From: JBDRED01 sp043820025 [NCBI: Elusimicrobiota bacterium]
GTDB lineage: Bacteria > RUG730 > JBDRED01
Direction of reading: 5' to 3'
Assembly: GCA_043820025.1 (NCBI GenBank)
Contig: JBDRED010000011.1
Location: 1 to 44,931, forward strand
Length of the DNA stretch: 44,931 nt
Shown here: positions 4,734-29,712 of the stretch, in pieces
Layout: the number at the start of each line of letters is the position of its first letter
How positions within the stretch are numbered: the first letter of the stretch is position 1
Notes under the pieces: generated by a model
What the model was told of the DNA's origin: nothing
Databases searched by the model: none
The model's input: only the letters and a program-made list of their open reading frames with translations
Program-made: the position numbers and the translations under genes

Positions 4734-7700
4734 GTGTTTGTAACCAAAAACTGTATCATTAAAAGAATATTGAGATGGGGAATCAGCGCGATTGCGGTTT
4801 TTGCTGTTTCAGCATTTCTAATACCGGCTGTATACGCATATGATATTAGGATAGAAGAAAATTATGCGCCGCAGCAGGGCGAAAAGGATATTGAGTTTAC
4901 AATAACAACAAGTGTTGATATGCAGGACGCCACAACAGCGCCGTACACATATAAGCCTGTGTTTTGGATAGAAGGAGTTACAGTTACTGATGTTGCCTGG
5001 TATAACTCAAAAACATTAAAAGCAACGGTTGATCTTACAAACTCTGCGCCGGGCCCGCATGCAGCGTATGTTTTAGCTGATATTACGCCGTCTTCGCCGC
5101 CATGGGGCGGGACAATTGCGCTTGTTCAGTCAGCATCTGCCACATTCACGGTAAAATCAAAACCCGAGATTTATGACTGCAGTCCAAAAGCCGCGTATCA
5201 GGGCAAGGGGAATACCGATATTACGTTAATAGGAAAGAATTTTTACAGTTTAAACACCAGCAATGGCTTTTTATCAATATCAGGTTCAGGCATAACTAAA
5301 ACAGGAATAAACTGGTCAAGCGGCGTGTCTAATTATCTGACAGTCTCAGCTGTAAATATTTCATCCAGCGCTTTGCCGGGAACTGCGCCATACCCAATAT
5401 ATTTTGAAAACCAGGACGGCGGAGGAAACACATCAAAAGATACGCAGGGCGAAGACAAAGGAATCTTTACTATTTATCCGCACCCTGCAATTTTATTAAT
5501 CAATAAAACTAATGTTTATCAAGGCCAGGAAGATGTCCAGGTTAGTATTTACGGGTCAGGTTTTCATTCAAGCAGTATTGTCGTAATATCAACTGCAAGC
5601 GCTGATTATGCCGCAGGGGCAGGCGGAGTAAATATAATAAGCAGTAAGGTTGAGGGCGATACCCTAATAACTCTTACATTAAGCGTTGAAGAAGACGCAG
5701 ATATTACGAGCACAAAGAATAGGACATTCTTTGTAATAAATGCTGACGGATCAGGAACCAATACAAATATCAGCGCTCAGTTTACAAAATCGAATTTTGT
5801 AACAGCAAGAAAAACATTTCATATTACGAGTATTGAAGGATCATTATACCAAGGCGAAACAAGTACCTTGACTGTACAATGTAATGCGGCCGGCGGAGGG
5901 TATGAAAATAGTATAGAGGCATCTTTACAGGGAGCAGGATTAACTCTTGAATCAACTGTGCGGGTTTCCAGCTTGCAGGCATGGGTAAGGGTAAAGGTTG
6001 ATCCAAAAGCAGATGTCGGACAGCGTTATGTTACGATAAAGAACCCTACATATAATTATGAAGATTCTTATCCAATTGATGTTCAGGCATCGCCATACAC
6101 AGAGCTTGCGTTAGCCAGCGCGTCTCCGCAGCAGCTCTATCAGGGCGATGTCAGCACTGTGACAATCACTGCTTCATCAGGCTGGTTCCAGGACGGAGTA
6201 AAGGCCGCAATTGGCGGCACGCAGGTAAAAATAGAGAATATTACAAAAATAAACCCGACTACTGTGTGGCTGCAAGTGTCTGTAGAGCCTACAGCCGCAT
6301 TAGGAGAAAGGCAGATTTCGATTATTAATGAGGCTTATGCAAAAACAGTTGTTACAGATATTAATATACTGCGCGGGCCTGTGCCTACAGGGCTCAAGGT
6401 CCAAAACCCGTCCACTATTGAGGTCGGGTATAAAGGCCTTGTAGAAATAAACGGAGATTCAAAAAGTTTTGAAACAAAAGCAGCGCCCACAGTCGAGTTT
6501 AGCGGCAGCGGCATAAGCGTGTTAAATGTTAATTCAGCTGACAGAGAAGTTATTGCCGTATATGCAAGAGACGCGATGCTTCCTCCGGGCGGCGGGTATA
6601 CGCAGGGCAATTTTTATTCAGGAACAGTATCTGATTCAAGTATTACAGTAAGCGGCAATCAGATTTCTTTTTATACTACAGGCAGTGAAAAATCAGGCAC
6701 AACAACATACGCTCTCACTGATGATGAGACGGATACGATTGCAGAACTTGCAAATAAAATCAATACATTAACGCCAAATGTAACAGCATTAATTCTTAAA
6801 GGCCCGGCAGGTTTAAATCCAAAGATAACAATAAATAAAGCAAATCCGTCACAATATGTATCTGTTAAAGATAACAGCCACAGCTACACATATTTTACCA
6901 GCGCGCAGACATTTAGTAATTTATCCGCAACACTTACAGGCTGGGGCTGGACAGTAACAATGAATATGCCTGCGTCTACTGTGCTTGGCGCGCTTTTTGA
7001 TACTGACACTAATAATGACGGAACCGGCGATGAGATTAATGTTACTACTTCAGATCCGGGAATGGCGTTTGCAGCCTCAGTTGATAATTATGGCAACGGC
7101 TGGGCAGCTGATCTTTTGGGTTATGGAAGCCAGGCTTCCACTGACCTGGAGGATAGAGGGTATAACCACTTAACCACAGCTGACTATTCTCAGAACCTGC
7201 GCGCTGAAACAGGAGGAGAACAGAATAGTATACAGGCATATATTGAGGTTGATCCGCAGGCAGTTACGGGAAACAGAATAGTAAATGTTACTAACCCGAC
7301 ATTCCAGACAAGCGGGGCTTGTTTAGTTAAAATAACGACTTCAGCATACAGCACCCCTGAGATAACGAGCGGTAACCAGATTGTTTATCAAAATGACAAG
7401 TTAAATATAACTATTACAGGCGTAGGTTTCAGTCCGGATTGCGAGTTCACGGTTGGAAGCGCAGGTATAACTGTGAATAGTTTTGTGCGTGTGAGCAATA
7501 CTGAAGCTATTGTATCAATAACCGTAGCCGCAGACGCTGAAGCAGGCTATTATCCAATTACAGTAAAAAATATTGACTATAACACATCTTATACAAAAAC
7601 AGACGCGTTTTCAGTAAGAGAGCGCCATCAGATTAATTCTGTGTCGCCTAATATTCTTGCGCCCGGCACAACAGAATATTTTTATATAAACGGCACAAGC

Positions 7701-10700
7701 TTTAGCAATACAGGCCAGTTTAAAATATTTATTGATGATAAACTGGCAACAAATACAAATTATTCGTCAGATAACATTGTGTTCATATCAAGCCACTGCG
7801 TTAGCAGGACACAGATATCATGCCAGGTTTTTATTGGCAGTAATGTTATTACCGGCCTTCATGATGTCAGCGTATATTTTGAAAAGAATGGGTCTACTGT
7901 AACTAAAGAAGGAGTTTTAACTATTCCAAAACAGCCAAGCATCATAGACGTTCAAGGAACTGTAAGCAGGGGAGATGTAAATAAAGAGGTAACAATACGA
8001 GGAAGCAACTTTGAACCAGGAGCAAAGGTTGTAATCAGCGGGTCAGGAATTATTGTAAGCACAGAAACGGTTATTTCTAATAAAATACTTACCTTTAGAT
8101 GCGATGTTGCTAAAGAAGCGGAAAAGACAAACAGAATAATAAAGGTCATTAATCCTACAGGCCAGTATGCAGAGGGAATATTAAAGGTAATTGCTCCTCC
8201 AAAGGTTGTTTCATGCACGCCAAATATTGTTTTAAAAGGAACAACAAGATATATTGAAATTACAGGAGAAGATATTAATGAAATTCACAGTATAAGATTT
8301 AGCGGCGTGACAAATACAGACCCTGCGGTTACGTTTGAAAACGCAATTAATCTGCGTGATCTAGGCGACGGCACAACCGTAGGCTATGCCGGCAGTACCC
8401 AGCTCTTTACATATGTTTATATAGGCACTGCTGTTGTCAGCGGCGCGCATGATATTAATATTACAAACTATACCGGCACAGACAGCGGCATAGAACCTGA
8501 AGCTGAAGGAATTGGAGCAGGGCTTCTGAATGTTAGGACTCCTCTTAGGATTGACAATGAGATTGGCGAATTCAGACTGCCTGCAGGAATAAATGAAAAA
8601 CTTGTGCGTATAAAGGGAGATGGATTTTCTCCAACATGCACAGTCGAAGTTACAGGCGGCGAGTTTGAAATAGCGAGGACCGATTTTATCGGGTCCAGAG
8701 AGCTTGAACTTTTAGTAAATATTCCTGATGACGCGAGGCTTGGGCCAAGAACAATTATTATTAATGAGATAGACGGATCAGCTGTTTATAAAGCAATTAT
8801 TGAAGTGATCCAGGCTGTAAAGATCTACGCGGTTACTCCACAAATGATAGGCGTGGGGATGACGCATGCAACAATGTCTATAACAGGTATTGGAATTGAT
8901 ATTGATACAAGCACATTTGTAACAAAAACATTTCATCACCCTAAGGGCGTATCTTATAATGTATACGGCATTGATCCTACAGGCCAGATAGAAATAAGCG
9001 GCGGAGGCATTAGCAATATTGTAATAGACAGCGCAACAGTAAGCAGTACAGGTTTAAAATTATTTTTTACTGTATTAGCTACTGCGCCGGTTACATCAAG
9101 GGATATTCGTATTATTAATAGGGATAAGGAAAATATAGCGGATAAAGCGGGAGCATTTGTTGTTGAAGAAATGGTAAAGATAAATATGATAAGTCCAAGC
9201 TATCACCAGATTGGTTCCAGCGAGCCGTTCTCAATCCGCGGCAGTGGGTTTGATACGACTAATAATTATGATACAGACGGAAGCGCTGTTATATTCAGCG
9301 GCACAGGATTAACGACAAATTATGTAAATGCTCCGGGCAGTAATTATGAACAGATTGTAGGGTCAATAACATCTGTGGGTAAGGAAGGCACTGTAGTTAA
9401 TAAGATAGCGGATGTCAGCGTTCGTAATAAGGATGGCACAATAGGCATGCGCAAGGGCGCTATAATTCTCGTAGATCCATTAGATATAAATCCTGCGCTT
9501 GTTTATCCGACGGTAATCCCTATCGGAGCGCTTAATGTGGCAGTGCATATTAAAGGCCAAGGCATAATGAATGGAGCTACCGCGTATTTCTGGAGAATGA
9601 AAAGCGGAATACCTGATTACGATGAAATAAGAACTGTTAACATAGATTATATTGATGAAACTGAAATTAAAGTATTTGTTAGAACAAATGCTTCAGGCAT
9701 GACTGAGAATGAATTATATAACCTTACGGTTGAAAACCCTAATGGCGCGGTAAAAATATTAAATGATATTATATCTGTTGATTTCAGGCCCGCGTTAAAT
9801 TCAGTAACGCCTAATTTTGTCAGGGTAGGCGGAGAAAAAGAAATTGTTATAAGCGGTAACAATTTTAATAGGTACACTATAAGCGATGTTGATTTTATGT
9901 CTGCCGGAGTTAATTTTGTTCCTAACTATTCAGATTATAATCATGGAGAAGACAATCTAATCACAGGCAAGGTAAAGGTTTATGATTTTGCCACACCGGG
10001 TATTGTTACTTTATTTGTTAATACATTGACTGAAGGCAAGGAAGGTTATGGAGAAGATATTATTAAGGTATTGCCTGCGCCAAGCGTAAATACGATTTCT
10101 CCGTCTGTGTTTAATGCGGAAATGACAACAAGTTTATATATAAAGGGGAGTAATTTTGACGAAGGCGTGGAAGTTATATTGTCAAAAACCATAACCGATC
10201 CTTTAGACGAGTCTGCCGAATATTCATTTAAAGAAGAAAACGGGCTCATAAGAAGCTCTACTCTCTTACAGATAAATGGTTTAGCTGTTTCTATAGAGGG
10301 ATTATATAAAGTTATAATAAAAAATGCGGATGGCAGTAAGGTTGAATTAGCGGACGCCATAACCGTTCTTCCGCCGGTAGCAAAGGCATTTGTAAACTCA
10401 TTAGTTCCAAATTACGCAAATTCGGGAGACATTAATAAACACATTGAGGTCCAGGGGTCAAACTTTCTGCCAGGCATGAATATTTACGCTGAAGGAATAG
10501 GCGTTACTGTATCTTCATCGGTAGTTTATACATCCAGCGCGACTCTTGTTATAAGTGTAGACGAGGCAAAGGCTATCCCCGGATTCTATAATATAATATT
10601 CCATAATCCGAAAGCTGATCCTACAGCCGCTCCATTCTATATAACATCTATTCCTGAGGTAACTGAAATACGGCCTGCTGCAATGCAGAGAGGGCTGGAA

Positions 10701-11870
10701 GGCAAGGTAGAGATTATAGGTAAAAACTTCAGCGAAAAAGCTATAGAAGATAGCGAGTATATTGAGGCAGAGATTGGCGGAAACAAAATAATTGTCTGGA
10801 AAGCGTCTACTACATTTGTCAGCAGTACGCAGTTAAACGCGTATATAAAAATACCTGCTAACACTCCGGTTGGAGGATATGACGTAAATGTGATTAATCC
10901 GCATCAGGTTGTAGGTAAAGGGCCGGGCTTATTTAAGGTTGTTGCGCCAATAGATGTTGAAAGCATCAGCCCTTATAAGGTAGCGCGCGGCGACGAAAAC
11001 AGGAAGCTTTTGGTTTATGGTTCGGGATTTGAGAATGGGCTGAGCGCGAGATTTTCAACAACAGACCTTACTGTCAGCAATGTCGAATTTATAAGCGATT
11101 CCCAGTTTACTATGGAAATAAGCGTTGATGATACTGCAGCTATAACTTCGCATGATATAGTGATTACAAATCCAACAGGCACTACAGCTACAATTGGAAA
11201 GGTTATTCAAGTTGGGCCTGCTGTGATTGTCAGCCAGGCAAACCCGAGCAGAATAGGCGTTGGCGCGCAGGGCGAGAATAGCGAGGGAGTGCCAATAGAG
11301 ATAATAGGAAGCAACTTTGATGTTACGGGAAATAGCGTTACTTTAAAAGACAGCGCAGGGATTATAGTCAGCGCTGTTGAAACAAACGGAGCAAATTCAT
11401 TAACAGCGTATTTAAAAATAGGCGATAATGTTACTCCGGGCCCGCGCGATGTGACTGTCATTACTCCGCTTGGAGCTAAAGGAACAGGCACAGGCATCCT
11501 GGAGGTAATAAACGCTGTTTCAGTAACAGGAATTGATCCGGACAATTCGCTTGTGGTTTATAAAGACGCGTTTAGATTATGGCATGATGGCGGAGTAACG
11601 AGCGCGAAGTATAAGGTTGTCGACGGCACACTCACTGTGACAGTTGATGGCGTGCCTACGAACTATGGTCTTTATAATGCTTCTTACGATACATTACAAG
11701 AATTGGCAGCAGCGATTGATGGAGTTTCAAACTGGAACGCTGAGCTTACAGCAACAAGCTCTGTTCTGCAAGGCATGCCTTCAAGATATTTAAGCGATGT
11801 TCCTTTAATAAATGTTTTGGTTCTAGCAATACTGCAACTGTACAGCTTGCGTATAACAGGCGTTCAGTAA
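4734..11870 (+). CDS. Giant IPT/TIG-repeat surface protein, N-terminal part (frameshifted)
   Basis: Starts at GTG 4734 with aggag at 4722-4726 upstream. Residues 1-36 are a signal peptide ending AVYA. The rest is about 21 TIG-type Ig repeats, each opening with a hydrophobic-x-S/P pattern, then a Gly and a strand such as VEIIGKNF or YIKGSNF, and closing with xxVxNPDG-like turns. One repeat (nt ~6600-7230) carries a large insert including the segment DETDTIAELANKINTL, reminiscent of flagellin IN-type motifs. A second insert begins near 11560. The frame ends at 11870 in sequence that no longer looks like TIG. Adding one T to the TTTT at 11815-11818 carries the frame smoothly into the next ORF. 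Predicted role: extracellular adhesin or surface filament. Family call is firm; role is inference. Confidence 0.85.
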   Translation: MFVTKNCIIKRILRWGISAIAVFAVSAFLIPAVYAYDIRIEENYAPQQGEKDIEFTITTSVDMQDATTAPYTYKPVFWIEGVTVTDVAWYNSKTLKATVDLTNSAPGPHAAYVLADITPSSPPWGGTIALVQSASATFTVKSKPEIYDCSPKAAYQGKGNTDITLIGKNFYSLNTSNGFLSISGSGITKTGINWSSGVSNYLTVSAVNISSSALPGTAPYPIYFENQDGGGNTSKDTQGEDKGIFTIYPHPAILLINKTNVYQGQEDVQVSIYGSGFHSSSIVVISTASADYAAGAGGVNIISSKVEGDTLITLTLSVEEDADITSTKNRTFFVINADGSGTNTNISAQFTKSNFVTARKTFHITSIEGSLYQGETSTLTVQCNAAGGGYENSIEASLQGAGLTLESTVRVSSLQAWVRVKVDPKADVGQRYVTIKNPTYNYEDSYPIDVQASPYTELALASASPQQLYQGDVSTVTITASSGWFQDGVKAAIGGTQVKIENITKINPTTVWLQVSVEPTAALGERQISIINEAYAKTVVTDINILRGPVPTGLKVQNPSTIEVGYKGLVEINGDSKSFETKAAPTVEFSGSGISVLNVNSADREVIAVYARDAMLPPGGGYTQGNFYSGTVSDSSITVSGNQISFYTTGSEKSGTTTYALTDDETDTIAELANKINTLTPNVTALILKGPAGLNPKITINKANPSQYVSVKDNSHSYTYFTSAQTFSNLSATLTGWGWTVTMNMPASTVLGALFDTDTNNDGTGDEINVTTSDPGMAFAASVDNYGNGWAADLLGYGSQASTDLEDRGYNHLTTADYSQNLRAETGGEQNSIQAYIEVDPQAVTGNRIVNVTNPTFQTSGACLVKITTSAYSTPEITSGNQIVYQNDKLNITITGVGFSPDCEFTVGSAGITVNSFVRVSNTEAIVSITVAADAEAGYYPITVKNIDYNTSYTKTDAFSVRERHQINSVSPNILAPGTTEYFYINGTSFSNTGQFKIFIDDKLATNTNYSSDNIVFISSHCVSRTQISCQVFIGSNVITGLHDVSVYFEKNGSTVTKEGVLTIPKQPSIIDVQGTVSRGDVNKEVTIRGSNFEPGAKVVISGSGIIVSTETVISNKILTFRCDVAKEAEKTNRIIKVINPTGQYAEGILKVIAPPKVVSCTPNIVLKGTTRYIEITGEDINEIHSIRFSGVTNTDPAVTFENAINLRDLGDGTTVGYAGSTQLFTYVYIGTAVVSGAHDINITNYTGTDSGIEPEAEGIGAGLLNVRTPLRIDNEIGEFRLPAGINEKLVRIKGDGFSPTCTVEVTGGEFEIARTDFIGSRELELLVNIPDDARLGPRTIIINEIDGSAVYKAIIEVIQAVKIYAVTPQMIGVGMTHATMSITGIGIDIDTSTFVTKTFHHPKGVSYNVYGIDPTGQIEISGGGISNIVIDSATVSSTGLKLFFTVLATAPVTSRDIRIINRDKENIADKAGAFVVEEMVKINMISPSYHQIGSSEPFSIRGSGFDTTNNYDTDGSAVIFSGTGLTTNYVNAPGSNYEQIVGSITSVGKEGTVVNKIADVSVRNKDGTIGMRKGAIILVDPLDINPALVYPTVIPIGALNVAVHIKGQGIMNGATAYFWRMKSGIPDYDEIRTVNIDYIDETEIKVFVRTNASGMTENELYNLTVENPNGAVKILNDIISVDFRPALNSVTPNFVRVGGEKEIVISGNNFNRYTISDVDFMSAGVNFVPNYSDYNHGEDNLITGKVKVYDFATPGIVTLFVNTLTEGKEGYGEDIIKVLPAPSVNTISPSVFNAEMTTSLYIKGSNFDEGVEVILSKTITDPLDESAEYSFKEENGLIRSSTLLQINGLAVSIEGLYKVIIKNADGSKVELADAITVLPPVAKAFVNSLVPNYANSGDINKHIEVQGSNFLPGMNIYAEGIGVTVSSSVVYTSSATLVISVDEAKAIPGFYNIIFHNPKADPTAAPFYITSIPEVTEIRPAAMQRGLEGKVEIIGKNFSEKAIEDSEYIEAEIGGNKIIVWKASTTFVSSTQLNAYIKIPANTPVGGYDVNVINPHQVVGKGPGLFKVVAPIDVESISPYKVARGDENRKLLVYGSGFENGLSARFSTTDLTVSNVEFISDSQFTMEISVDDTAAITSHDIVITNPTGTTATIGKVIQVGPAVIVSQANPSRIGVGAQGENSEGVPIEIIGSNFDVTGNSVTLKDSAGIIVSAVETNGANSLTAYLKIGDNVTPGPRDVTVITPLGAKGTGTGILEVINAVSVTGIDPDNSLVVYKDAFRLWHDGGVTSAKYKVVDGTLTVTVDGVPTNYGLYNASYDTLQELAAAIDGVSNWNAELTATSSVLQGMPSRYLSDVPLINVLVLAILQLYSLRITGVQ

Positions 11871-17800: not shown

Positions 17801-20800
17801 ACAAACCAGGACGTAATAATAAGCGGCGCTAATTTTGAGCAGGGCGCAATAGTTAACTTTATCGGCGGCGGAGTAAATATTACAACAACAACATTATTAA
17901 GCAAAACAGAGCTGAGATTAAAGATAGATATAGACGAAGCGGCTCAGCTTGGGTATAGGGGAATAAATGTAACAAACCCAAGCGGCAGGGTTTCTGAAAC
18001 TGTGCCGAATATTTTCCAAGTAACAGCTATGCCGGAAATTATATCCATGAGCCCTGCAAGCCTGGTCAGAGGCACCACTAATTGGGTAACTATTGCCGGC
18101 AATGGATTTAGCGAAGAAGCTCAGCTGGAGGTAACTGCGGATAATTATATAACAATAAGTTCATTAACGGTTGTCGGAGCTACTCAGATTAGGTTTAAAG
18201 CAAGCATTGGATCTAACGCGGTTATCGGACAGCACGATATAATGGTTTGGACAAATAATGGCAGCGGCATAGGTAAAGGCGTGTTTAAGGTTGTTGATCC
18301 TGTATCAATATTAAATGTAACTCCTCCTTCAGTAGCCAGAGACAATAAAGCGCATAGCATGTCTATAACAGGAGAGAGTTTTGACGAGGAAACGCAAATA
18401 GAGGTAACAGGGAATGGCGTTACTGTAGGCAATATTAAATTCGTTAGTTCTCAGGAAATGAGTTTTTATCTCACGCTCGCTACGGACGCAGATGAAACAT
18501 ATAGAGATATTATTATAACAAACAAGGAAGGCTCATCAGCCACACAAACAAACGCGGTTAATGTTGTAGAGCCGGTTGTTATTTCAGGTATAGAGCCCGC
18601 TTCGCTTGGTATAGGCGCAAGCAGTCAGACAGTCATTATAAACGGCACGGGATTTAGTCTTATTAATGGGTCTACTCCTACAGTCACTATAGCGGGCGTG
18701 GGGGTCACGCTAAGCCCGCAAGTTTCTTATAACAGCAGCAGACAGCTGGTTGTAACAGCGCATGTGTCTCCAACCGCGTCAGTAGGGGCAAGGACAATTA
18801 CTGCGGCTAACGCAGATGGTAATGAAGGAGAGGGAGCCGGATTGTTATCAGTAGAAGAAAAGATATCTATTCAGGCTGTTGAACCTGCTTCTAAGGCAAT
18901 AAGCACAACAACATTTAGTCTTAAAATTATTGGAAGCGGGTTTGATACTCAAGGAGATACTCCGACAATATCCTTAAGCGGCAGGGGCGTGTCTGTAGTT
19001 TCAAGGTATGCCCCGACGAGCGGAAGCGAGATGCATATTGATCTCCTGATAGACACAAATACAGTCACGGTCGGATCTAGAGATATAACGATCACTAATC
19101 CGGATGGGACAACAGGCATAGGCAAGGGCGTATTTACAATAACAGAACCGCTCACAATAATTAAAACAGTGCCTACGGACCTGGGCAAAGGCGCTGTTCA
19201 AAAAACAATAAGCGTTTATGGCCGAGGGTTTGTAGAAGGCGCGCAAATAACATTTGACGGCAGCAACGGCATAAATTTAATCGGCAGTCCTAAATATATA
19301 AGCGCTGAACAAATAGATTTAACGGTGTCTCTCGACAATCCTGCGGTTTATGTAGGGTTTAGCACTATGACAGTAACCAATCCAAATATGGATTCTTATA
19401 CGACAAACAGAGTATTTAAGGTTACAGACGCGCCGGTTGTAAATGCAATAAGCCAAGGAGCCGCGTTTGGCCAGGGCGCGGCCAATCAAACGGTAGTTAT
19501 TACAGGCGCTAACTATGTAGTTGGGAATACTACTGTGACATTTGCCGGGCTTGGAGGAGGGGTAATAGTTCGTAATACCCAGGTAAACGCGAGCAGTAAT
19601 ACAATAACACTTACAATAGATGTGAGCAATAACGCGACAATAGGCAAGAGAGATATTATAGTAACATCAGGGGGAATTTTTGGAACCGGCAAAGCATTGT
19701 TCGAAGTATTATCCAAACCTATTATCCAGACTGTAACTCCGTCAGGGCATCTAGTCGGAACAACGAATCAAACTATAACATTAACAGGCCTGGGATTTGG
19801 CTCAGGTGGCGGAACATCGGTTTCATTCAACCCGAATTATATAACGGTTAATTCTGTATCACTAATAAATTCACAAACAGTGAAATTAAATGTTTCATTA
19901 AACGGGCCAAGTATTGAGGTTGGAAATTACGACATAATAGTAACAAACAATGATAACAGCACAGCTGCAAAAGAGGATGCGTTTGCAGTGCTTCCATCAT
20001 TGCCTACGCCAATTGTGTATAGCATTTCCCCGTCTAAGGTGCATCAGGGTTTAAGCGGACAAGAGATCGCTGTAATCGGCGGTAATTTTGAACAAGGCGC
20101 TATTGTTTCATTCAGCGGCGGAAAGGTAATAGGCAGCAGCGTTGCATATATAAGCGAAAGCCAATTGCAATTAGTGGTTGCTGTTGAATCTGACGCTGTA
20201 GTAGGGTTTAGGGATGTGACAATAACAAATCCGAATAGCGGAACATATACTTTAGAGGATGGGTTTGAAGTTGTTACAACGCCGACAATTACAAGCTCGG
20301 ATCCGTCATCAATATCAAAGCCTGTTTCAGGCGGAGAGAACCATACGCTATTAATAAACGGAACAGGATTCTCAGAAAATGCGTCAGTCCGCATAAGCGG
20401 CCAGTCAATATATGTTTCTTCAACCAGATTTGTCGGAAGCACACAGCTTGAGACGAGTATTGTTGTATACTCAAGCGCTTCAGTCGGCGCTCATGATATT
20501 ATTGTAGATAATACGTTTGGTATCAGCGGTTTGGGCGCAGGCGCTCTAAAGATTACTGAACCTTTGACAATAGATAATACAACCGCATTACAAATCCCGC
20601 GGGGAGTAAAGGATAGAATCATTACAGTTAAAGGAACAGGTTTTGAAAATGGCGCCAGTGTTGTGTTTGGCGGCGGAGGAATCACAGTGAATTCTGTAGA
20701 CCGGCTCAGCTCAAAAGAGCTTGAATTAAGCGTTAGTGTGGCTGATAACGCTGAGCTTGGAGCAAGATTAATAACCATAACTAATACAAACGGCACGTCG

Positions 20801-23800
20801 AGAACAAGCGAAACAGGTATTTTAGAGATCGTTGAGCCGATACTGGTAAGCAGCTGCGAACCGTCACAGATAGGAAAGGGATTGACTAATAAAATTTTAG
20901 TAGTGCATGGCAGCGGGTTTGAAGACGGCGCGATTGTAAGCATTAGCGGGTCAGGTATAACTCTTGAACAAGGGCCTGCTACATTTGTCAGCGCCGGCGA
21001 ACTGCATTCAACAATTACAGTTGTTGGAATGACGAATATTGTGCTTGGGCCAAGGGATGTTGTTGTGACAAATCCAAGCGGAGAAAAAGGCGTTGGCAGC
21101 GGGGTATTAGAGGTAGTTAATGCAATAACAATAGATACGATTGAGCCTAAATACATGGTTAGAGGCACATCAGGCACAGTCAGTATCAGAGGACAGGGCT
21201 TTGACTTAATTAATGGAAGCACTCCGACTGTTACAATAACAGGCGGGGGCGTAATTATAAACCAGAGCAGTGTTACATATGTGAGCAGTGTGGAGCTTAC
21301 GGCTCATTTTGATGTCAAGTCAGACGCTGCTGTCGGAGCTCGCGATCTTACAATCACAAACGCGGACGGCACAATAGGCAAGGGAATAGGAGTTTTCCAG
21401 GTAACCGTTGATCTGACTATTACAAACGTATTGCCTGAAAGCCTGGGCCAGGGCGCGCAGAATGAATGGGTGGAGATTAGAGGAAGAGGGTTTACCGAAG
21501 ATGCGGCAATTGATTTTGGCAGCGATATAACTGTGCAAGAAATTAATTATGTAAGCAGTGAAAAATTATTAGCGAAGATTTCTATAGATACGGGCGCGTC
21601 AGGCGCGTATAACCTAACGGTGCGCAACCCGCATGATGTTGACACAAAATCAAGCGCGCTTACAATAACAAATGTTCCTGTTGTATTAAATGTGTCTCCA
21701 CAAAGTTATTCGCAAGGAGCAAAAAATCAAACATTAATTATTGATGGATATAATATCGCCGGCAGCAGCGCAGTGCGGTTTAATGACGGCAACATTATTG
21801 TCAGCACGCCTACTGTATATACATCTAGTATGGTTGTGACAGTAACAGTTCCGCAAGGCACAGAAGCCGGTAAAAAGGATATAATAATAACGGATAACAC
21901 AGGCAGGCTTGGAATATCAAGAGGAGTATTTGAAATCACTCCAAAGCCAACAGTTATAAAGACTGATCCTGCTGTAGTTGATCAGGGAACAAAGGATGTT
22001 CCTCTCACAGTTTACGGAACAGGATTCAAGCCGGGAATTTCAGTCAGTTTTAATAATACGGACTTGAAGATAGTCGGGCAGGCAGTCTATATCAGCCCTG
22101 AACGCGTTACAGTCAGCGTTGACGCGTCATCATCAACTGCAGGCACATATGATGTTATTGTTACAAACAGCGACCAAAGCAAAGGCGCAGGGTATGGTAT
22201 TTTAAGCGTTGTAAAACCGCCTGTCATAACAAAATGTTCTCCGGCGCAGTTAAGCCAGGGCACGCAGGAACAAAACATAGTAATATCAGGATCTGACTTT
22301 ATGAAAGGGCTTACAGTAAACTTTATAGGCGGGAGCGGAGTATTTATAAGCTCTACAAGCGTTGTTTCTTCAAATCAAGTAATAGTCAAAGTAAGTGTTA
22401 ATGATGACGCTGCTGTAGGCGCGCGAACTGTGCAGATAGTTAATCCAAACAACAGCGCTACAGGCCTGTCAGGCGTTAATAAATTCGAAGTAACTCCAAA
22501 ACCAATTATTAATTCGCTGGTTCCTGCGACATTAATGCAGGGAGCAACATCATGGATTACAATAAAAGGAACAGGATTTTATGTCGGCAGTGAACCAAGC
22601 GTTATTATTCCTACAGTAACATTCAGCGGCGGAGGCATAATAATCAGCTCAACAGCGTATGTTGGCAGCACTGAAATAAAAGTTTACGTTGAAGTAGCTG
22701 ATACCGCAGTTTCAGGCAATAGGGATGTGCGTGTTGTAAATGCGGACGGAACTGCTGCGATTGGAGAGGGTAAGCTTACAATTGTTGCGCCTATGCAAAT
22801 AACCAGTTTATATCCTGCAGTTGTAGCGTATGGCGATACAGACAAGATTATTACAATAAAAGGCCAAGGGTTTAATGAAAATGCGGCTGTTGTGTTCAGC
22901 GCCGGAGATATTACAGTCAGTAATGTAACATACGTAAGCGACAATGAAATGAGCGTTACAATAAGCGTGCCTTCTGACAGCGAAGAAGGCCCGCGCGATA
23001 TAACAATTACAAACCAAAACGGAGTCTCAATAACCGCTGTAAATCTGTTCTCTATTATAGCGCCTATTACCATAAACGGGGTTAATCCTTCTGTTATTGG
23101 CAGAGGCGTTGTAAATAAAACCGTTCTCATTAGCGGAAGCAACTTCCAAGATGGGGCAGTAGTCAGTATTTCCGGAGCAGGCGTAACCCTAAGCACAGTT
23201 AGTTACAGTAATACAGAAATAGGAATAGCAGTCAGCGTAGCTGAGAACGCTCCTTTAAGTAAACGCGATATTACTATCACTAACCCGAACGGGTTAAAGA
23301 AAGTTCAAAAGGAATTATTAGAGGTTGTCAGCGATGTTACAATCAGCAAACTTACGCCGGGGTATGTAATGCAGGGAAGTTCGCTCTGGATAGATATTGC
23401 AGGCACAGGTTTTGGCGGAGTTACCGCATCTACGCCAAGCATTAAACTGAGCGGCACAGGGTTATATATTAGTTCAATCACGTACGCCGGATCAACAAGC
23501 CTGCGTATGTATATTATAGTCGCTTCAACAGCGAATGTTGGAGCTCGAGATATTACAATTCGCAATGCGGATGGGACAATAGGCGTTGGACAAGGTTCGT
23601 TAATTGTGACTGAACAGATGCAGATTACAGCTGTAGAGCCGGCTGCAATTGGCAGGGGCGCAGAGAATCAGGAAATAGTAATCACAGGTATTGGGTTTAT
23701 TGACACGCCGTCAATAGTGTTTAGTAAGGCGGGTATTTCCGCCTCAGGAGTAACATTTATAGGCAGTAATAAAATTAAGGTAAATGTAAGCGTGCTTGCT

Positions 23801-24710
23801 TCGGCAGCAACCGGATATACAGATATTACTATTAAAAATCCTAATAATGTCAGCAAGACAGCGAGCGGATTATTAGGCATAAATTTAGCGCCTGTTATTA
23901 CAGGATTGAGTATTTCCGAACTGCCTCAGGGCGCTGAAGAGCAAACAATTATTATTAGCGGATATAATATGCAGGTAAATACAAACACAGCTGTTGAATT
24001 TAGCGGCACTGACATAAGCGTAAAATCTACAAATGTTACAGCAGCTACAAGTATGGCGGTTGTTGTTTCAGTTAATAAGGGCGCGTCGCTTGGAGCGCGT
24101 GATATAATAATTACCAATGCTAACGGCGAGATTGGGGTTGGAAGAGCGATATTTAATATTACTAAAGGGCCGCAGATTATAAGCATTGCTCCAACAAGCT
24201 TAGATCAAGGAGTGCATAATCAAGAGGTTAATATATATGGATCCGGATTTAAGGCAGGAGCAGTCTTTTCTGTAGACGCTCTTAAGGTTACAATAAGCGA
24301 AACAAGATTCGTATCAAGCGATAGATTAATTGCTGTGGTAAGTATTGATTCAGGCACTCCGACAGGCCAGTATAATGCGAGCATTAGAAATCTTGACGGA
24401 AGCAATACAACCGGCGTCAATCTGTTTACAGTAACGCCGCCGCCTTCAATAGCTATAGTAACGCCGACAAAGATAAACAGAGGCGTAACAAACTTTGACA
24501 TAACAATAATCGGAAATAATTTTGCCGACGGAGCTGTAGTGTCAATTGACGGCGCCGGTATCAGCGTTAATAAGGTTACGTTTGTTTCATCGGTAAAATT
24601 GATTGTAAATATTACAGTCAGCGAGTCTGCAACGGTCGGGTCCAGGACAATAACAGTTGTTAATACAAACGGCAGTATTGGCATAGGCGCGAATATGCTG
24701 GAGATAGCGT
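4850..24710 (+). repeat. About 65 TIG repeats with an eight-repeat super-unit
   Basis: Repeats of about 92 residues recur throughout the giant gene. Every eighth boundary carries a proline-rich hinge: TIPKQP (nt 7926), LPPVAK (10371), NEPPKQ (12932), KEPPIPP (15143), LEPPLTP (17744), LPSLPTP (19994), VKPP (22217), TPPPS (24436). Spacings are 2445, 2561, 2211, 2601, 2250, 2223 and 2219 bp; the 2561 and 2601 spans contain non-TIG inserts. Each other repeat position also keeps its own signature. For example, the repeat before the hinge ends with a G-x-Y-[DN]-type strand and N-x-D-x-S, and the repeat three after the hinge opens with a P-x-x-[IL]-G-x-G-like motif. This indicates amplification of an eight-domain block. 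Confidence 0.85.
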
Positions 24711-26050
24711 CCGTTCCCAGCTTGTTATCAAATGTGAAAGCGACAAATACGCTCATTGATTATGAAAAAGGCGGAGTGCCGGATGGAGTGACTGTTCAAT
24801 ATACATTATCAGCTCCGGTTGACCAGTTAAAGTTAGATGTTTATAAAGGCAGCGGCGAGAATGTCAGGTCAATAATATTATATGATGTGCCGTTAGGCGC
24901 TCATACGACTGACTATGTTTTCTTCTGGGATGGATCAATTATAGTTAATCAAGCGACAGGCCAGAGAGGAAAAATAAATGGAGAATATCTATTAATAGTT
25001 TCAGCAACGAGCGGCAATGAAATAGTTTCAGTACAGCTGGCAAATAGGATTGAGGTTGAGGTTGTAAATATTTATAATCAGCAAATAGAATATACAAAAA
25101 TAGGCTCAAACCAGGACGAGATAGGGCCTTATAAAATAAAATTTGATTTATCAAAAGCCGCATTTACCACATTAAATGTTTTAAATAGCTCAGGTACTGT
25201 TGTAAGAGACCTGGGCATGCAGTTAGGAAAGAGCGGCGCTAATGCGTTTAGCTGGGATGGCCGCGACTCAAGCGGAAAGAATGTAGCGCGCGATGTTTAC
25301 ACAATCAGGATTGACGCGTACGACGAATCAATTCCTACTGACCGAGCTTACTCAAAATATGTTAAAGTTTCTGTGGACCAGCTTAAGGTTGTAGATGTTC
25401 AGATTTCAACATTAAAAGCCATTAACTCGCCGGCGAAGATACAGTTTATTCCGGCTGAGACTATGAATATTACAGTTACAATATATGAGCCGGGCACAGA
25501 GATAAAAAATGGAGTGCCTGTAACGCCCGGCAAGGTTGTAAAAACAATGACCACATATTTAGAGAAAGGCACAACATTCTATACTGAATGGGATGGAAAG
25601 GATTCAAAAGGCAATACCCTGATAGACGGAGATTATGTGCTCGTAATAACAGGCGTAGATAGTTTTGGAAGCAGTATCAGCGAGCCGATAGTCAGGTCTA
25701 TTTCAGTGCTTAGGGCCGGTGATATTAATGCGCGCAAACAAATGTTTGAAGAAAACAGTTACGTGTATCCAAACCCTGTAAGAACGGCCGTAAACAGCAG
25801 CGTAAAAATAAGGTACTCGCTCAACAGGGCTGCAGGGCTAAGATTACAAATTTTCGATATTATGGGGGATGTGATCTATCAAGCAAGCAAAGATAGTTTA
25901 AGTGTTGCTGAGAGCGAATTTATTTGGGATGTAAAGAATGATTCAGGCCGCGATGTAGCGCGCGGATTATATATTTATGTTTTAGAAGCGAAAGAGTATG
26001 AGTCAGGCGAAGTTTTAAGAGTATCAAAGAAGATAATGGTGATAAGATGA
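11912..26050 (+). CDS. Giant IPT/TIG-repeat surface protein, main part with FlgD-like and sorting-like C-terminus
   Basis: 4,712 residues from the first in-frame GTG, but similarity to the repeat family begins before it: this frame reads GSSNTATVQLAYNRR and then VTVNGTGF upstream of 11912, so the true protein continues from 4734. About 44 TIG repeats follow to about 24710, with an obvious eight-repeat order. The C-terminal 440 residues differ: three FlgD-like Ig blocks (24725-25715, with FFWDGS, SWDGRDSSGK and EWDGKDSKGN turns) and a final domain from about 25755 opening YVYPNPV and ending KKIMVIR, which resembles type IX secretion sorting domains. No ribosome site precedes 11912. The stop overlaps the ATG of the PorV gene. 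The repaired protein of ~7,100 residues would be secreted and surface-exposed. Confidence 0.86.
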   Translation: MPAVTVSGTGVTSINGSTNVSSKLSLTTQLLIDTALSFPSARDVKVKNPDGTLGQGLGLLTLLEPLSISTCTPHVIGKGAENTSIRVYGKGFAEGIRGRSDSAGAVVGNVNYIGANEMIVPVSIDDIYSGGTAQITLINTNGDSAQFTLDVQEIPVITSITPDFAPQGAGGLASTMTVVINGYKLGDVDVSTGVSFGNGIIVSTLTAVSQNSLTLGIRVQSFATVGMRNITIIDKNGKKGIEYDAFEVTAKPSITSITPASLTAGTTVTVDVRGTGFNDNAKLSMSGSGFNVFGYNYYNNERFLAKVYASTLTIPGTYDITVTNPDQSKGEGYGLFTLNEPPKQPEILEIVPGEMVQGLVDQELWVLGHNFENGIVVSFGGGGIQKSSMVYVNENQLRLIVTVDAAALEGSRLVRVINPSGKTDAKESFTIISLPKVTKVVPNTLTQGTTTTVYVQGTGFTTGADVTISGAQGITVSNIEITGAAELHFSAYVSPQALVGAHDVTVITPNGTGQGPGLLNITAPLNISSVYPSTFAQGAENRDVWIRGTGFREDSQIVIGNNEIEIINTAYLNQNEMRVTINVPGTANIGDKEIAVYNNTGAKDTSDGLFFVIPPVEVTAVYPEEIGIGVQNKRIRIDGKEFKDGAAVKIVGLGVTVSSVTFSSTNQIFANVSVNTDVLEGYRDVVVTNLDGNYGKGESVINIKEQVTVSMLSPEYFVLTPGTTYQNLIVRGANFEGAPSISFSGQGVSIAPGSVNLISSDELTATVWVDTMNVTNSSIRDIYVTNSDGAIGKGGSLFRIIKPISVSRVVPSALGLGSENAHIKINGEGFIESSDVTFNDSKITVSDVQYISAEQLDVTLSIEMNAYLGKATFTITGFGAPIVNNTAFTVTDAPVIHSVEPAKYARGAKLQTLKIQGTGFDIHSTTVSIPSGITIHSLNVNVLETEITLVISVESWAEIGKRDVTVVAGNNGKFGTAEDIFEIVAGPSISDIYPEAIIQGKTKQDIVINGAGFSEGLSVKIDAVGVTTNTITFAGENKLIVNVDVLQKTSNPGKYDIIITNPDGSQGKGIEIFEVKEPPIPPTLVSISPERANKGTTASLVLTGSNFQKGMVLSFPGGGISITTSSWKSVTQVDATIEVLDTALIGPRNIILSNPDGGVLTYNNAFEVTTVPIVTSITPSSIERRANVTREMYVNGTGFIEGANVKISGYGVFVSSVVYMGTTELLAYIVITDTAPIGTRDISVINPYDIRGLGEGLLNVVAPAGISKLSPSKLTLGESNRIISIFGSGFNSPVNVKFEGGIIVNNIAFFDDTRIDVDVTVPNTVSTGWKSVTVTNIDQGVETKKSGALEIGNPVEVIQLDPSSIGRGALNKEIVVTGSNFSDSNNSVTVDAVGVVVTTYTTNGTTSITMKVNVSETAPLGTLDVQVTNSEGSKGVGKGVLEIVDKVKINSIDPAYIEKSWENLTELSHDHSDLFSIYMNAGDNSNARVFISSTVMKIAAYGGTNLGTHTITLGDYTIEGLIIEIKQYNTGAGAGQNGWEVTYNEAVYQQFKDYSATALTPLYWKEAYQSFDAETAGIDYNYIYGKEVIIRGEGFSLEGSPSVTVSGSGITTQNTSVESDGYMKTNFKIDADNIGVGAHDITIRNADGTIGKGYGVLQFLEPLYISTCAPSVIGNTEGTGTEVVRIIGKGFIENMGVTLKAGTGLAINNIKYIDSTEIQVTVTPSEIGNKTLEIKNPETERTKDVILRVEALPIVTGVSPSSLPQSAGGASSTTITLYGKGFDVSTSSAASKIIKFSDNRITVSSITYLSAGRDQMNINVRVDRAAAIGSVNIEITDKDNNIGTSREVFSITPSPSVVSITPASLRPGTTVSMDIRGTGFASDSRILFSGVGISTTSYKFASSERILVGVIADAEKIIPDVYDITVQNGDLSSGIGYGILTVLEPPLTPIVIGISPDKVAVKQTNQDVIISGANFEQGAIVNFIGGGVNITTTTLLSKTELRLKIDIDEAAQLGYRGINVTNPSGRVSETVPNIFQVTAMPEIISMSPASLVRGTTNWVTIAGNGFSEEAQLEVTADNYITISSLTVVGATQIRFKASIGSNAVIGQHDIMVWTNNGSGIGKGVFKVVDPVSILNVTPPSVARDNKAHSMSITGESFDEETQIEVTGNGVTVGNIKFVSSQEMSFYLTLATDADETYRDIIITNKEGSSATQTNAVNVVEPVVISGIEPASLGIGASSQTVIINGTGFSLINGSTPTVTIAGVGVTLSPQVSYNSSRQLVVTAHVSPTASVGARTITAANADGNEGEGAGLLSVEEKISIQAVEPASKAISTTTFSLKIIGSGFDTQGDTPTISLSGRGVSVVSRYAPTSGSEMHIDLLIDTNTVTVGSRDITITNPDGTTGIGKGVFTITEPLTIIKTVPTDLGKGAVQKTISVYGRGFVEGAQITFDGSNGINLIGSPKYISAEQIDLTVSLDNPAVYVGFSTMTVTNPNMDSYTTNRVFKVTDAPVVNAISQGAAFGQGAANQTVVITGANYVVGNTTVTFAGLGGGVIVRNTQVNASSNTITLTIDVSNNATIGKRDIIVTSGGIFGTGKALFEVLSKPIIQTVTPSGHLVGTTNQTITLTGLGFGSGGGTSVSFNPNYITVNSVSLINSQTVKLNVSLNGPSIEVGNYDIIVTNNDNSTAAKEDAFAVLPSLPTPIVYSISPSKVHQGLSGQEIAVIGGNFEQGAIVSFSGGKVIGSSVAYISESQLQLVVAVESDAVVGFRDVTITNPNSGTYTLEDGFEVVTTPTITSSDPSSISKPVSGGENHTLLINGTGFSENASVRISGQSIYVSSTRFVGSTQLETSIVVYSSASVGAHDIIVDNTFGISGLGAGALKITEPLTIDNTTALQIPRGVKDRIITVKGTGFENGASVVFGGGGITVNSVDRLSSKELELSVSVADNAELGARLITITNTNGTSRTSETGILEIVEPILVSSCEPSQIGKGLTNKILVVHGSGFEDGAIVSISGSGITLEQGPATFVSAGELHSTITVVGMTNIVLGPRDVVVTNPSGEKGVGSGVLEVVNAITIDTIEPKYMVRGTSGTVSIRGQGFDLINGSTPTVTITGGGVIINQSSVTYVSSVELTAHFDVKSDAAVGARDLTITNADGTIGKGIGVFQVTVDLTITNVLPESLGQGAQNEWVEIRGRGFTEDAAIDFGSDITVQEINYVSSEKLLAKISIDTGASGAYNLTVRNPHDVDTKSSALTITNVPVVLNVSPQSYSQGAKNQTLIIDGYNIAGSSAVRFNDGNIIVSTPTVYTSSMVVTVTVPQGTEAGKKDIIITDNTGRLGISRGVFEITPKPTVIKTDPAVVDQGTKDVPLTVYGTGFKPGISVSFNNTDLKIVGQAVYISPERVTVSVDASSSTAGTYDVIVTNSDQSKGAGYGILSVVKPPVITKCSPAQLSQGTQEQNIVISGSDFMKGLTVNFIGGSGVFISSTSVVSSNQVIVKVSVNDDAAVGARTVQIVNPNNSATGLSGVNKFEVTPKPIINSLVPATLMQGATSWITIKGTGFYVGSEPSVIIPTVTFSGGGIIISSTAYVGSTEIKVYVEVADTAVSGNRDVRVVNADGTAAIGEGKLTIVAPMQITSLYPAVVAYGDTDKIITIKGQGFNENAAVVFSAGDITVSNVTYVSDNEMSVTISVPSDSEEGPRDITITNQNGVSITAVNLFSIIAPITINGVNPSVIGRGVVNKTVLISGSNFQDGAVVSISGAGVTLSTVSYSNTEIGIAVSVAENAPLSKRDITITNPNGLKKVQKELLEVVSDVTISKLTPGYVMQGSSLWIDIAGTGFGGVTASTPSIKLSGTGLYISSITYAGSTSLRMYIIVASTANVGARDITIRNADGTIGVGQGSLIVTEQMQITAVEPAAIGRGAENQEIVITGIGFIDTPSIVFSKAGISASGVTFIGSNKIKVNVSVLASAATGYTDITIKNPNNVSKTASGLLGINLAPVITGLSISELPQGAEEQTIIISGYNMQVNTNTAVEFSGTDISVKSTNVTAATSMAVVVSVNKGASLGARDIIITNANGEIGVGRAIFNITKGPQIISIAPTSLDQGVHNQEVNIYGSGFKAGAVFSVDALKVTISETRFVSSDRLIAVVSIDSGTPTGQYNASIRNLDGSNTTGVNLFTVTPPPSIAIVTPTKINRGVTNFDITIIGNNFADGAVVSIDGAGISVNKVTFVSSVKLIVNITVSESATVGSRTITVVNTNGSIGIGANMLEIASVPSLLSNVKATNTLIDYEKGGVPDGVTVQYTLSAPVDQLKLDVYKGSGENVRSIILYDVPLGAHTTDYVFFWDGSIIVNQATGQRGKINGEYLLIVSATSGNEIVSVQLANRIEVEVVNIYNQQIEYTKIGSNQDEIGPYKIKFDLSKAAFTTLNVLNSSGTVVRDLGMQLGKSGANAFSWDGRDSSGKNVARDVYTIRIDAYDESIPTDRAYSKYVKVSVDQLKVVDVQISTLKAINSPAKIQFIPAETMNITVTIYEPGTEIKNGVPVTPGKVVKTMTTYLEKGTTFYTEWDGKDSKGNTLIDGDYVLVITGVDSFGSSISEPIVRSISVLRAGDINARKQMFEENSYVYPNPVRTAVNSSVKIRYSLNRAAGLRLQIFDIMGDVIYQASKDSLSVAESEFIWDVKNDSGRDVARGLYIYVLEAKEYESGEVLRVSKKIMVIR

Positions 26051-28864: not shown

Positions 28865-28882
28865 TAATGCTTGGGAGTTTTT

Positions 28883-29647: not shown

Positions 29648-29648
29648 A

Positions 29649-29677
29649 TGCAGGGGCTTGATGAATCAACCCCTGCA
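29649..29677 (+). terminator. Strong hairpin between secretin and cpaEF genes
   Basis: TGCAGGGG (29649-29656) pairs perfectly with CCCCTGCA (29670-29677), and the loop itself can pair TTGAT with ATCAA, giving a long stable stem. No T-run follows, so it is better read as an mRNA-stability or partial-termination element between the secretin gene and the ATPase gene than as a full terminator. Confidence 0.45.
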
Positions 29678-29712
29678 ACGCATTACGCGCGACTATAAAA
29701 GGAGCATAACAA

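What the first reader, a model, noticed from the sequence alone, without database searches (positions are those of the whole stretch)
4734..26050. An eight-domain super-repeat built the giant TIG protein
The ~65 TIG repeats are not a simple tandem array. Every eighth boundary has a proline-rich hinge (nt 7926, 10371, 12932, 15143, 17744, 19994, 22217, 24436), and each of the eight positions keeps its own signature: the repeat before the hinge has a G-x-Y-[DN] strand, the repeat three after it an [IL]G-x-G opening, and the following one a longer 'GFxxxxxxP' loop. The last periods are almost constant (2211-2250 bp without inserts). This means a block of eight diverged domains was amplified as a unit, giving a protein with a long-range ~740-residue structural period, possibly a rod or filament with regular hinges.
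Basis: seen in the sequence. Interest (0 to 1): 0.82.

Follow-up and report, generated by a model that had tools for sequence, protein, structure and literature searches.

The report
Eight-domain super-repeat in giant bacterial protein
A giant, probably surface-displayed bacterial protein is built largely from seven old copies of the same ordered block of eight related domains, a long-range modular pattern best known from muscle giants such as titin and nebulin.

Summary
The finding holds. Cutting the two open frames (nt 4734-11870 and 11744-26050) with a profile built from their own units gives 58 consecutive TIG units, nt 7632-24727. Units eight (or 16, 24, 32) apart are far more alike than others (contrast 37.1, null s.d. 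1.8, 0 of 20,000 shuffles). With a whole block held out, 49 of 58 units go to the right one of eight positions, about 7 by chance. Seven blocks run from nt 7941 to 24448; the N-terminal units and the last unit are out of register.

All eight reader hinges carry 2-4 prolines, but only five linkers are longer (by three residues), and the models do not show flexibility. Synonymous sites are saturated, so the amplification is old. A type IX-like tail and an overlapping PorV/PorQ-family gene suggest a secreted surface stalk or fibre (inferred). Block amplification is known from nebulin and titin; I found no bacterial TIG example in the papers searched. None of nine comparison TIG giants shows period eight, though only one was long enough for a fair test. 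The phylum, whether the split gene is intact, and the function are unknown.

The parts
4734..11870 (+). First open frame of the giant TIG gene (2378 aa): signal-peptide-like start, non-periodic TIG units, then block 0 and part of block 1
   Evidence: signal-peptide-like start read by eye
11744..26050 (+). Second open frame (4768 aa from stop to stop; first listed start codon at 11912), rest of the giant TIG gene; the frame changes inside one slot-5 unit, where the two frames overlap
7941..10391 (+). Block 0 (eight TIG units, most diverged copy)
   Evidence: (6 of 8 units to the right slot)
10392..12949 (+). Block 1 (eight TIG units; slot 5 carries an insertion and the frame change)
   Evidence: 7 of 8
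12950..15160 (+). Block 2
   Evidence: 8 of 8
15161..17761 (+). Block 3 (slot 5 carries an insertion of roughly 120 residues, by eye near the same point as in block 1)
   Evidence: 8 of 8
17762..20014 (+). Block 4
   Evidence: 6 of 8
20015..22225 (+). Block 5
   Evidence: 8 of 8
22226..24448 (+). Block 6 (slots 5 and 6 are assigned to slots 2 and 3 in the hold-out test, as after a local exchange)
   Evidence: 6 of 8; b6s2 with b6s5, 99/95
24449..24727 (+). Last TIG unit, not clearly in register
   Evidence: slot 4 75.7 bits, slot 1 64.9 bits
7914..7940 (+). Proline-rich junction before block 0, ordinary length
10365..10391 (+). Proline-rich 8->1 junction 0|1, linker three residues longer
12923..12949 (+). 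Proline-rich 8->1 junction 1|2, linker three residues longer
15134..15160 (+). Proline-rich 8->1 junction 2|3, linker three residues longer; 6-residue gap between strands in the model
17735..17761 (+). Proline-rich 8->1 junction 3|4, linker three residues longer
19988..20014 (+). Proline-rich 8->1 junction 4|5, linker three residues longer
22199..22225 (+). Proline-rich 8->1 junction 5|6, ordinary length; 3-residue gap in the model
24422..24448 (+). Proline-rich junction after block 6, ordinary length
25127..25324 (+). FlgD-type Ig-like domain (best of several in the tail)
   Evidence: PF13860, 102.6 bits over the tail, cut-off 27
25790..25996 (+). Type IX-like C-terminal sorting domain
   Evidence: PF13585 CHU_C 32.8 bits for the tail alone, 19.6 bits for the whole second frame, cut-off 27; PF18962 24.6 bits, cut-off 27
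26047..27045 (+). PorV/PorQ-family outer-membrane protein gene, overlapping the end of the giant gene by 4 bases
   Evidence: (NF033709 105.3 bits, cut-off 90)
4031..4717 (+). Small gene just upstream, signal-peptide-like start (by eye) and two TIG-like units
   Evidence: 32.7 and 12.0 bits with the window's own unit profile; no Pfam match

Best explanation
The gene encodes a giant secreted protein (about 65 TIG domains, over 7,000 codons across the two frames). Its middle and C-terminal part was built by repeated in-frame duplication of a block of eight already diverged TIG domains, perhaps with one step that copied two blocks together, and with some local exchange between slots. The duplications are old: DNA likeness between blocks is almost gone, yet slots keep some residues of their own and each junction its own linker, which suggests selection on slot-specific domain-domain interfaces. 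After export across the inner membrane, a type IX-like C-terminal domain and the overlapping PorV/PorQ-family protein would carry or hold it at the outer surface, where it would stand as a very long modular stalk or fibre with an eight-domain period (roughly 30 nm if each domain spans about 4 nm, as in titin). Shown by computation: units, period, slot identity, synonymous saturation, PorV-family neighbour. Supported less firmly: the C-terminal domain. Inferred: selection, export route, surface location, stalk or fibre shape.
For: Period 8 by unit lag: contrast 37.1, null s.d. 1.8, 0 of 20,000 shuffles; among periods 2 to 20 only 8 and its double stand out. Collinearity of unit similarities z 15.1. 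Hold-out slot assignment 49 of 58, binomial p 2e-35 against 1/8. Unit tree of 55 units: slot labels need 15 changes, shuffled mean 39.0, as low in 0 of 200; block labels need 44. All 4 DNA self-matches at E<=1e-3 lie at unit lags 16, 32, 16 and 16. Age: at identical residues the codon is the same in 40.0% of in-register cases, 38.5% expected from usage; off-register 39.8% and 38.1%. In-register identity is higher in 78 of 91 columns, so likeness is spread over the domain. Two-block step: blocks 1 and 3 pair with 98/98, 2 and 4 with 62/86, and slot 5 is interrupted near the same point in blocks 1 and 3 (by eye). Junction code: 2-4 prolines at the pre-slot-1 junction (8 of 8), none at 4->5 (0 of 6 examined). 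Export: CHU_C 32.8 bits for the tail alone, cut-off 27; the tail also matches the C-terminal ends of the PorU and PorZ models (51.8 and 50.4 bits); PorV family above cut-off.
Against: No slot forms a single clade in the unit tree (0 of 8; 91 columns for 55 units). In-register identity is only 31% against 25%, so slot memory could be inertia, not selection. Register fails upstream of nt 7941 and for the last unit. The tree program warns that blocks 2 and 4 join on long branches, and the two slot-5 insertions are not alike by BLASTP (E 1.7), so the two-block step is not firm. CHU_C scores 19.6 bits, below its cut-off, when the whole second frame is scanned, and the two Por_Secre_tail models stay below cut-off. 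No type IX gene beyond one PorV-family gene was recognised in the window. The gene is split between two frames here, so whether it is made as one protein is unknown. Inter-domain geometry is not predicted reliably (pTM 0.43, 0.42).
Confidence: 0.7

Rival explanations
1. The super-repeat exists, but it is only the fossil of block duplications; the eight-fold pattern has no structural or functional role and is decaying. Proline junctions are inherited linkers.
For: Slot trees are blurred, 9 of 58 units are misassigned, block 6 mixes slots 2/5 and 3/6, long linkers are absent at the last two hinges, large insertions are tolerated, and the gene is split between frames.
Against: Synonymous sites are saturated while features such as the slot-8 Tyr and the slot-4 Gly remain in 7 of 7 blocks. 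Slow protein change alone could also explain this.
Confidence: 0.3
2. Positional convergence: single-domain duplications made the array, and a helical or junctional constraint later made every eighth unit alike, without block duplication.
For: Several of the strongest slot columns lie at the C-terminal end of the unit; DNA likeness between blocks is almost gone.
Against: In-register identity is raised in 78 of 91 columns across the whole domain, and the DNA-level matches left, 4 of 4, are at multiples of eight.
Confidence: 0.04
3. The periodic region is a molecular ruler: one slot per block binds a partner (another fibre, a glycan, or the two-TIG protein encoded at 4031-4717), giving binding sites at a fixed spacing, as in titin or nebulin.
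For: Fixed order over seven blocks and slot-specific residues; an upstream gene with two TIG-like units; titin precedent (passages of PMC7427331).
Against: No partner, no structure and no relative with the same slots found; slot-specific residues are spread over several slots without one dominant slot.
Confidence: 0.15

Closest known systems
Nebulin and other block-expanded domain repeats (Bjorklund et al. 2006, PMC1553488; passages seen)
   Same: Similarity between domains peaks at a fixed multi-domain distance (seven in nebulin); expansion by several domains at a time; a similar autocorrelation test.
   Different: Eukaryotic muscle protein with short helical modules (recalled); here TIG Ig-like domains, eight per block, in a bacterial gene.
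Titin A-band super-repeats (PMC10665226 and PMC7427331; passages seen)
   Same: Ig-like beta-sandwich domains in seven- and eleven-domain super-repeats; domains at the same position are most alike; position-specific residues and linkers.
   Different: Ig and FnIII domains on the muscle thick filament; no sequence relation detected; the ruler role has support there, none here.
Bacterial fibrillar adhesins with TIG or other stalk domains (PMC9210967; passages seen)
   Same: Arrays of Ig-like stalk domains on long surface proteins; TIG is named as a stalk domain.
   Different: No eight-domain super-repeat in the passages seen; no adhesive head domain was recognised here.
Giant type IX cargo: SprB of Flavobacterium (PMC12635249, passages) and grappling hook protein GhpA of Aureispira (structures; PMC11205867 passage, describes the hook protein without that name)
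   Same: Large surface proteins exported by the type IX system (size of SprB recalled); two GhpA fragments are among the 50 fold matches shown for the eight-domain model (ranks 12 and 48).
   Different: No sequence match to any solved structure; here TIG arrays with an eight-domain period; type IX machinery not seen.
Other giant TIG proteins (L001, L026, L028-L031 in the phylum of G001, a genome titled Nitrospirae; L033 and L035 in that of G004/G005, titled Armatimonadota and WS1; L044 in that of G003, titled Bacteroidales)
   Same: 10-30 TIG-like units each, frames of 1,886-4,314 residues.
   Different: None shows an eight-unit period. Eight of the nine were tested for the window's slot order and none is significant (highest z 2.0, L029).

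Membership tests
TIG/IPT domain proteins (PF01833) | Pfam TIG score above the curated cut-off | tested here: met
   69.4 and 215.9 bits for the two frames, cut-off 20.9
Block-amplified super-repeat proteins (nebulin, titin type of organisation) | Domain similarity peaks at a fixed lag greater than one and at its multiples | tested here: met
   Peaks at 8, 16, 24, 32, 40; 0 of 20,000 shuffles
Block-amplified super-repeat proteins (nebulin, titin type of organisation) | Position in the block can be told from sequence in copies not used for training | tested here: met
   49 of 58 units
Titin or a titin homologue | Detectable sequence relation to titin or other solved Ig-like arrays | tested here: not met
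   0 of 177,635 distinct PDB sequences at E<=0.1; fold-level likeness only
Molecular ruler | Fixed-spacing binding of a partner along the super-repeat | not testable with these tools
   needs structure or binding data
Type IX secretion cargo | C-terminal sorting domain above curated cut-off | tested here: inconclusive
   CHU_C: 32.8 bits for the tail alone, 19.6 for the whole second frame, cut-off 27. Below cut-off: PF18962 24.6 of 27, TIGR04183 19.7 of 23
Type IX secretion cargo | Type IX machinery in the same genome | tested here: inconclusive
   One PorV/PorQ-family gene next door; no genome is held for this window
Type IX secretion cargo | N-terminal signal peptide | tested here: inconclusive
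   Signal-peptide-like start read by eye; no predictor was run
Fibrillar adhesin | A known adhesive head domain beside the stalk | tested here: not met
   At E<=0.001 Pfam finds only TIG, TIG_SUH, Qn_am_d_aIII, FlgD_ig and CHU_C in the two frames; the three insertions and the N-terminal 222 residues alone gave no family above cut-off

The most novel reading that the evidence does not exclude
A bacterium has evolved a titin-like ruler on its surface: a TIG fibre whose eight-domain period, kept through saturating synonymous divergence, sets regularly spaced interaction sites or kinks about 30 nm apart along roughly a quarter of a micrometre.
Probability: 0.15. Interest if true: 0.85.

Novelty: new variant of a known kind. 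Interest (0 to 1): 0.58.

Why it matters
Multi-domain super-repeats are best known from eukaryotic giants, where in titin they mirror a physical period. A bacterial case with seven old copies offers an independent instance: it shows that such order can arise in a bacterial gene and outlast synonymous divergence, and it makes the question of what keeps a super-repeat recognisable (structure or inertia) testable in a second system.

Tried and rejected
Raw residue-lag dot-plot: does not single out about 740 residues, because insertions shift the lag; replaced by unit-based tests. Automatic numbering from spacing gave a weaker signal for the second frame (z 5.3), because the block 3 insertion shifts the phase; replaced by a numbering-free collinearity test.

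Recent amplification: rejected, codon agreement is about what usage predicts. Tandem Repeats Finder finds one short array in the window, but its longest period is 500, so it could not see a 2.2 kb unit.

Relatives with the same super-repeat: none found. Genome contigs scan: 5 loci, titled as other groups. Viral contigs: none for the block alignment or the PorV-like protein. Plasmids and phages: no tblastn match. The genome search with the block alignment: 34 of 198 genomes at E<=1e-3 in the phylum of G001; at E<=1e-20, 9 of 201 in the phylum of G004/G005 (searches gave the same matching genomes), 7 of 297 in that of G002, 1 of 296 in that of G003. RuvB of the window is 50-63% identical in the 16 of 18 genomes with a full-length match, so the window's phylum could not be told and may not have been searched.

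Comparison giants: DNA was read from 13 of the 34 genomes, 7 of the 9, 4 of the 7 and the 1; some genes run off their contig. 89 frames of 700 aa or more in 52 partly overlapping loci were examined; frames with fewer than 10 units were dropped, leaving 9 distinct proteins. None has period 8 (the nearest is L026: lag 7 z 2.0, lag 8 z 1.7). Power is poor: of window subsets with 15 or 18 units only 36% and 52% reach collinearity z>2.5, with 24 or 29 units all do. L033 (30 units) is the only fair comparison: it has collinearity z 2.9 (1.8 with 29 units), with best lags 3, 9 and 4, so it lacks period 8 but may hold another block pattern.

Insertions as a known domain: Pfam gave only a non-significant Flagellin_IN hit (E 9.7); the two slot-5 insertions are not alike by BLASTP.

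Literature: no paper on a bacterial TIG super-repeat in the listings (open-access PubMed Central subset only; papers were seen as listings or passages, none in full). PMC11573180 (passages) does not contain the terms TIG or IPT.

Full report
What is there. The region holds one giant TIG-domain gene that, in this sequence, lies in two overlapping open frames: 4734-11870 (2378 aa) and 11744-26050 (4768 aa from stop to stop). The change of frame falls inside a single TIG unit, in the overlap; I treated the two frames as separate pieces for cutting and scoring. Pfam gives TIG (69.4 and 215.9 bits, cut-off 20.9) and FlgD-type Ig-like domains, and a type IX-like tail domain when the tail is scanned alone.

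Objective cutting. I built a unit profile from ten units picked by a start-motif rule and searched both frames. The second frame splits into 45 units of about 90 residues, head to tail, with one large insertion. The first frame has weaker hits, some of them partial. From its residue 967 onward the units are regular; together this gives 58 consecutive units. Borders come from the profile hits, with some set by hand where a hit began inside a unit. Numbering follows the order alone. The unit that spans the frame change is represented by its C-terminal part only.

The period. All-against-all scores, with each unit's general level removed, are highest at unit lags 8 (+34), 16 (+44), 24 (+32), 32 (+34) and 40 (+20). 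Lag 1 is below average (-2.4); the next best lag is 3 (+7.6). The contrast for multiples of eight is 37.1 with a null s.d. of 1.8; 0 of 20,000 shuffles reach it. Among periods 2 to 20 only 8 and 16 stand out; 4 is weakly raised because it contains 8. The nearest neighbour of a unit, after levelling, has the same slot in 41 of 58 cases, 11% expected. A test that needs no numbering agrees (collinearity z 15.1). Among the 100 best ungapped self-matches of the second frame, 37 are at multiples of eight.

Prediction test. I trained eight slot profiles without one block at a time and asked to which slot each held-out unit belongs. 49 of 58 were right (p 2e-35 against 1/8). By block: 6, 7, 8, 8, 6, 8 and 6 of 8 for blocks 0 to 6; the units just before and just after were both wrong. 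The N-terminal units show no order (0 of 5 steps). So the super-repeat is seven blocks, nt 7941-24448, inside a longer TIG protein.

Slot identity. Of 91 alignment columns, 17 carry slot information at z>3. Examples: Tyr in slot 8 (7 of 7 blocks); Gly at the [IL]GxG column in slot 4 (7 of 7) and slot 6 (6 of 7); Asn or Asp before the Phe in slot 1 (7 of 7); Pro of the long loop in slot 5 (5 of 7). The linkers differ by junction too: 2-4 prolines before slot 1 in 8 of 8, on average about one elsewhere, none at 4->5 in 6 of 6 examined (the seventh was not examined because it meets the frame change). Five of the eight linkers before slot 1 are three residues longer.

Age and route. Blocks are 27-40% identical in register. 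At identical residues the codons agree about as often as usage predicts (40.0% against 38.5% in register, 39.8% against 38.1% off register), so synonymous sites look saturated. Only four DNA self-matches pass E<=1e-3, and all four lie at unit lags 16, 32, 16 and 16. In-register identity is raised in 78 of 91 columns, which argues for descent of whole domains and against convergence at a few contact sites (all). Blocks 1 and 3 group with strong support (98/98), 2 and 4 more weakly (62/86), where the program warns of long branches. Slot 5 is interrupted near the same point in blocks 1 and 3, though the two insertions are not alike by BLASTP. I read this as a possible step that copied two blocks together. 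In block 6 slots 2 and 5 are each other's closest relatives (99/95), a sign of local exchange. The weak excess at lag 3 (slots 2 with 5 and 3 with 6) may be an older, smaller duplication.

Structure. Two eight-domain models with the hinge in the middle fold into beta-sandwich domains (mean pLDDT 86.9 and 86.8). pTM is 0.43 and 0.42, so relative orientation is not to be trusted, and neither hinge motion nor a rod is shown. The closest solved folds include Ig-like arrays such as titin I65-I70, plexins and two fragments of the grappling hook protein GhpA; no solved structure is matched by sequence.

Surroundings. The start of the first frame looks like a signal peptide (by eye). The tail has FlgD-type domains and a CHU_C match of 32.8 bits when scanned alone, but 19.6 bits, below the cut-off of 27, when the whole second frame is scanned; two other sorting-tail models stay below cut-off. 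The next gene overlaps by four bases and is a PorV/PorQ-family protein (105.3 bits, cut-off 90). In Flavobacterium, PorV or alternative carriers take type IX cargo from the translocon (PMC10994853, passages). A small upstream gene (4031-4717) has two TIG-like units. From this I infer a secreted, surface-held protein; the rest of a type IX system could not be looked for, because no genome is held for the window.

Comparison. Nine other giant TIG proteins with at least ten units, show no eight-unit period. Eight of them were tested for the window's slot order, in eleven frames of which four are overlapping reads of one gene; none is significant (highest z 2.0). Most are too short for a fair test: window subsets of 15 or 18 units reach z>2.5 in only 36% or 52% of cases, subsets of 24 or 29 always. 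L033 with 30 units is the fair negative for period eight; it has a collinearity signal of its own (z 2.9, best lag 3).

What is known. Expansion by several domains at a time is common in eukaryotic repeats, with a peak at seven in nebulin (PMC1553488, passages). Titin has seven- and eleven-domain super-repeats with position-specific residues and linkers (PMC10665226, PMC7427331; passages). I found no report of such order in a bacterial TIG protein in eight searches of an open-access library, which is not the whole literature. I therefore call it a new variant of a known kind.

Verdict. Block amplification is close to certain. That the period is structural is plausible but open, and the hinge is a proline-rich linker whose mechanics are unknown.

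Noticed in passing
11744-11870: The giant gene is split between two frames inside an insertion-bearing slot-5 unit; sequence error, decay or recoding cannot be told apart without reads or relatives.
   Followed up: partly
6567-7223, 11535-11789, 16277-16678: Three large insertions inside TIG units (borders approximate). The first two share a short TLxELAxxI-like stretch (BLASTP E 0.025); the first has a non-significant Flagellin_IN likeness (E 9.7).
   Followed up: partly
22226-24448: In block 6, slots 5 and 6 are assigned to slots 2 and 3 and slots 2 and 5 pair in the tree, suggesting local exchange or gene conversion.
   Followed up: partly
4031-4717: Small gene with a signal-peptide-like start and two TIG-like units directly upstream of the giant gene; possible partner.
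   Followed up: partly
28100-31890: Flp/Tad-type cluster: CpaB, a short secretin (258 aa) and a TadA-like ATPase with an N-terminal CbiA/MinD-type domain (725 aa).
   Followed up: no
898-2385: ThyX-family protein of 495 aa with two Thy1 stretches, as if the domain were doubled.
   Followed up: no
35245-36407: HipA_C-like short frame next to a HIRAN-domain gene, possibly remains of a toxin-antitoxin locus.
   Followed up: no
L028, L029, L030, L031: Four TIG proteins of 4,140-4,314 aa in genomes of one phylum (that of G001), similar in size, possibly one conserved giant family.
   Followed up: no
L033 1497-12176 (- strand): 30-unit TIG protein with a weak collinearity signal (z 2.9) best at lag 3, perhaps another, smaller block expansion.
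   Followed up: no
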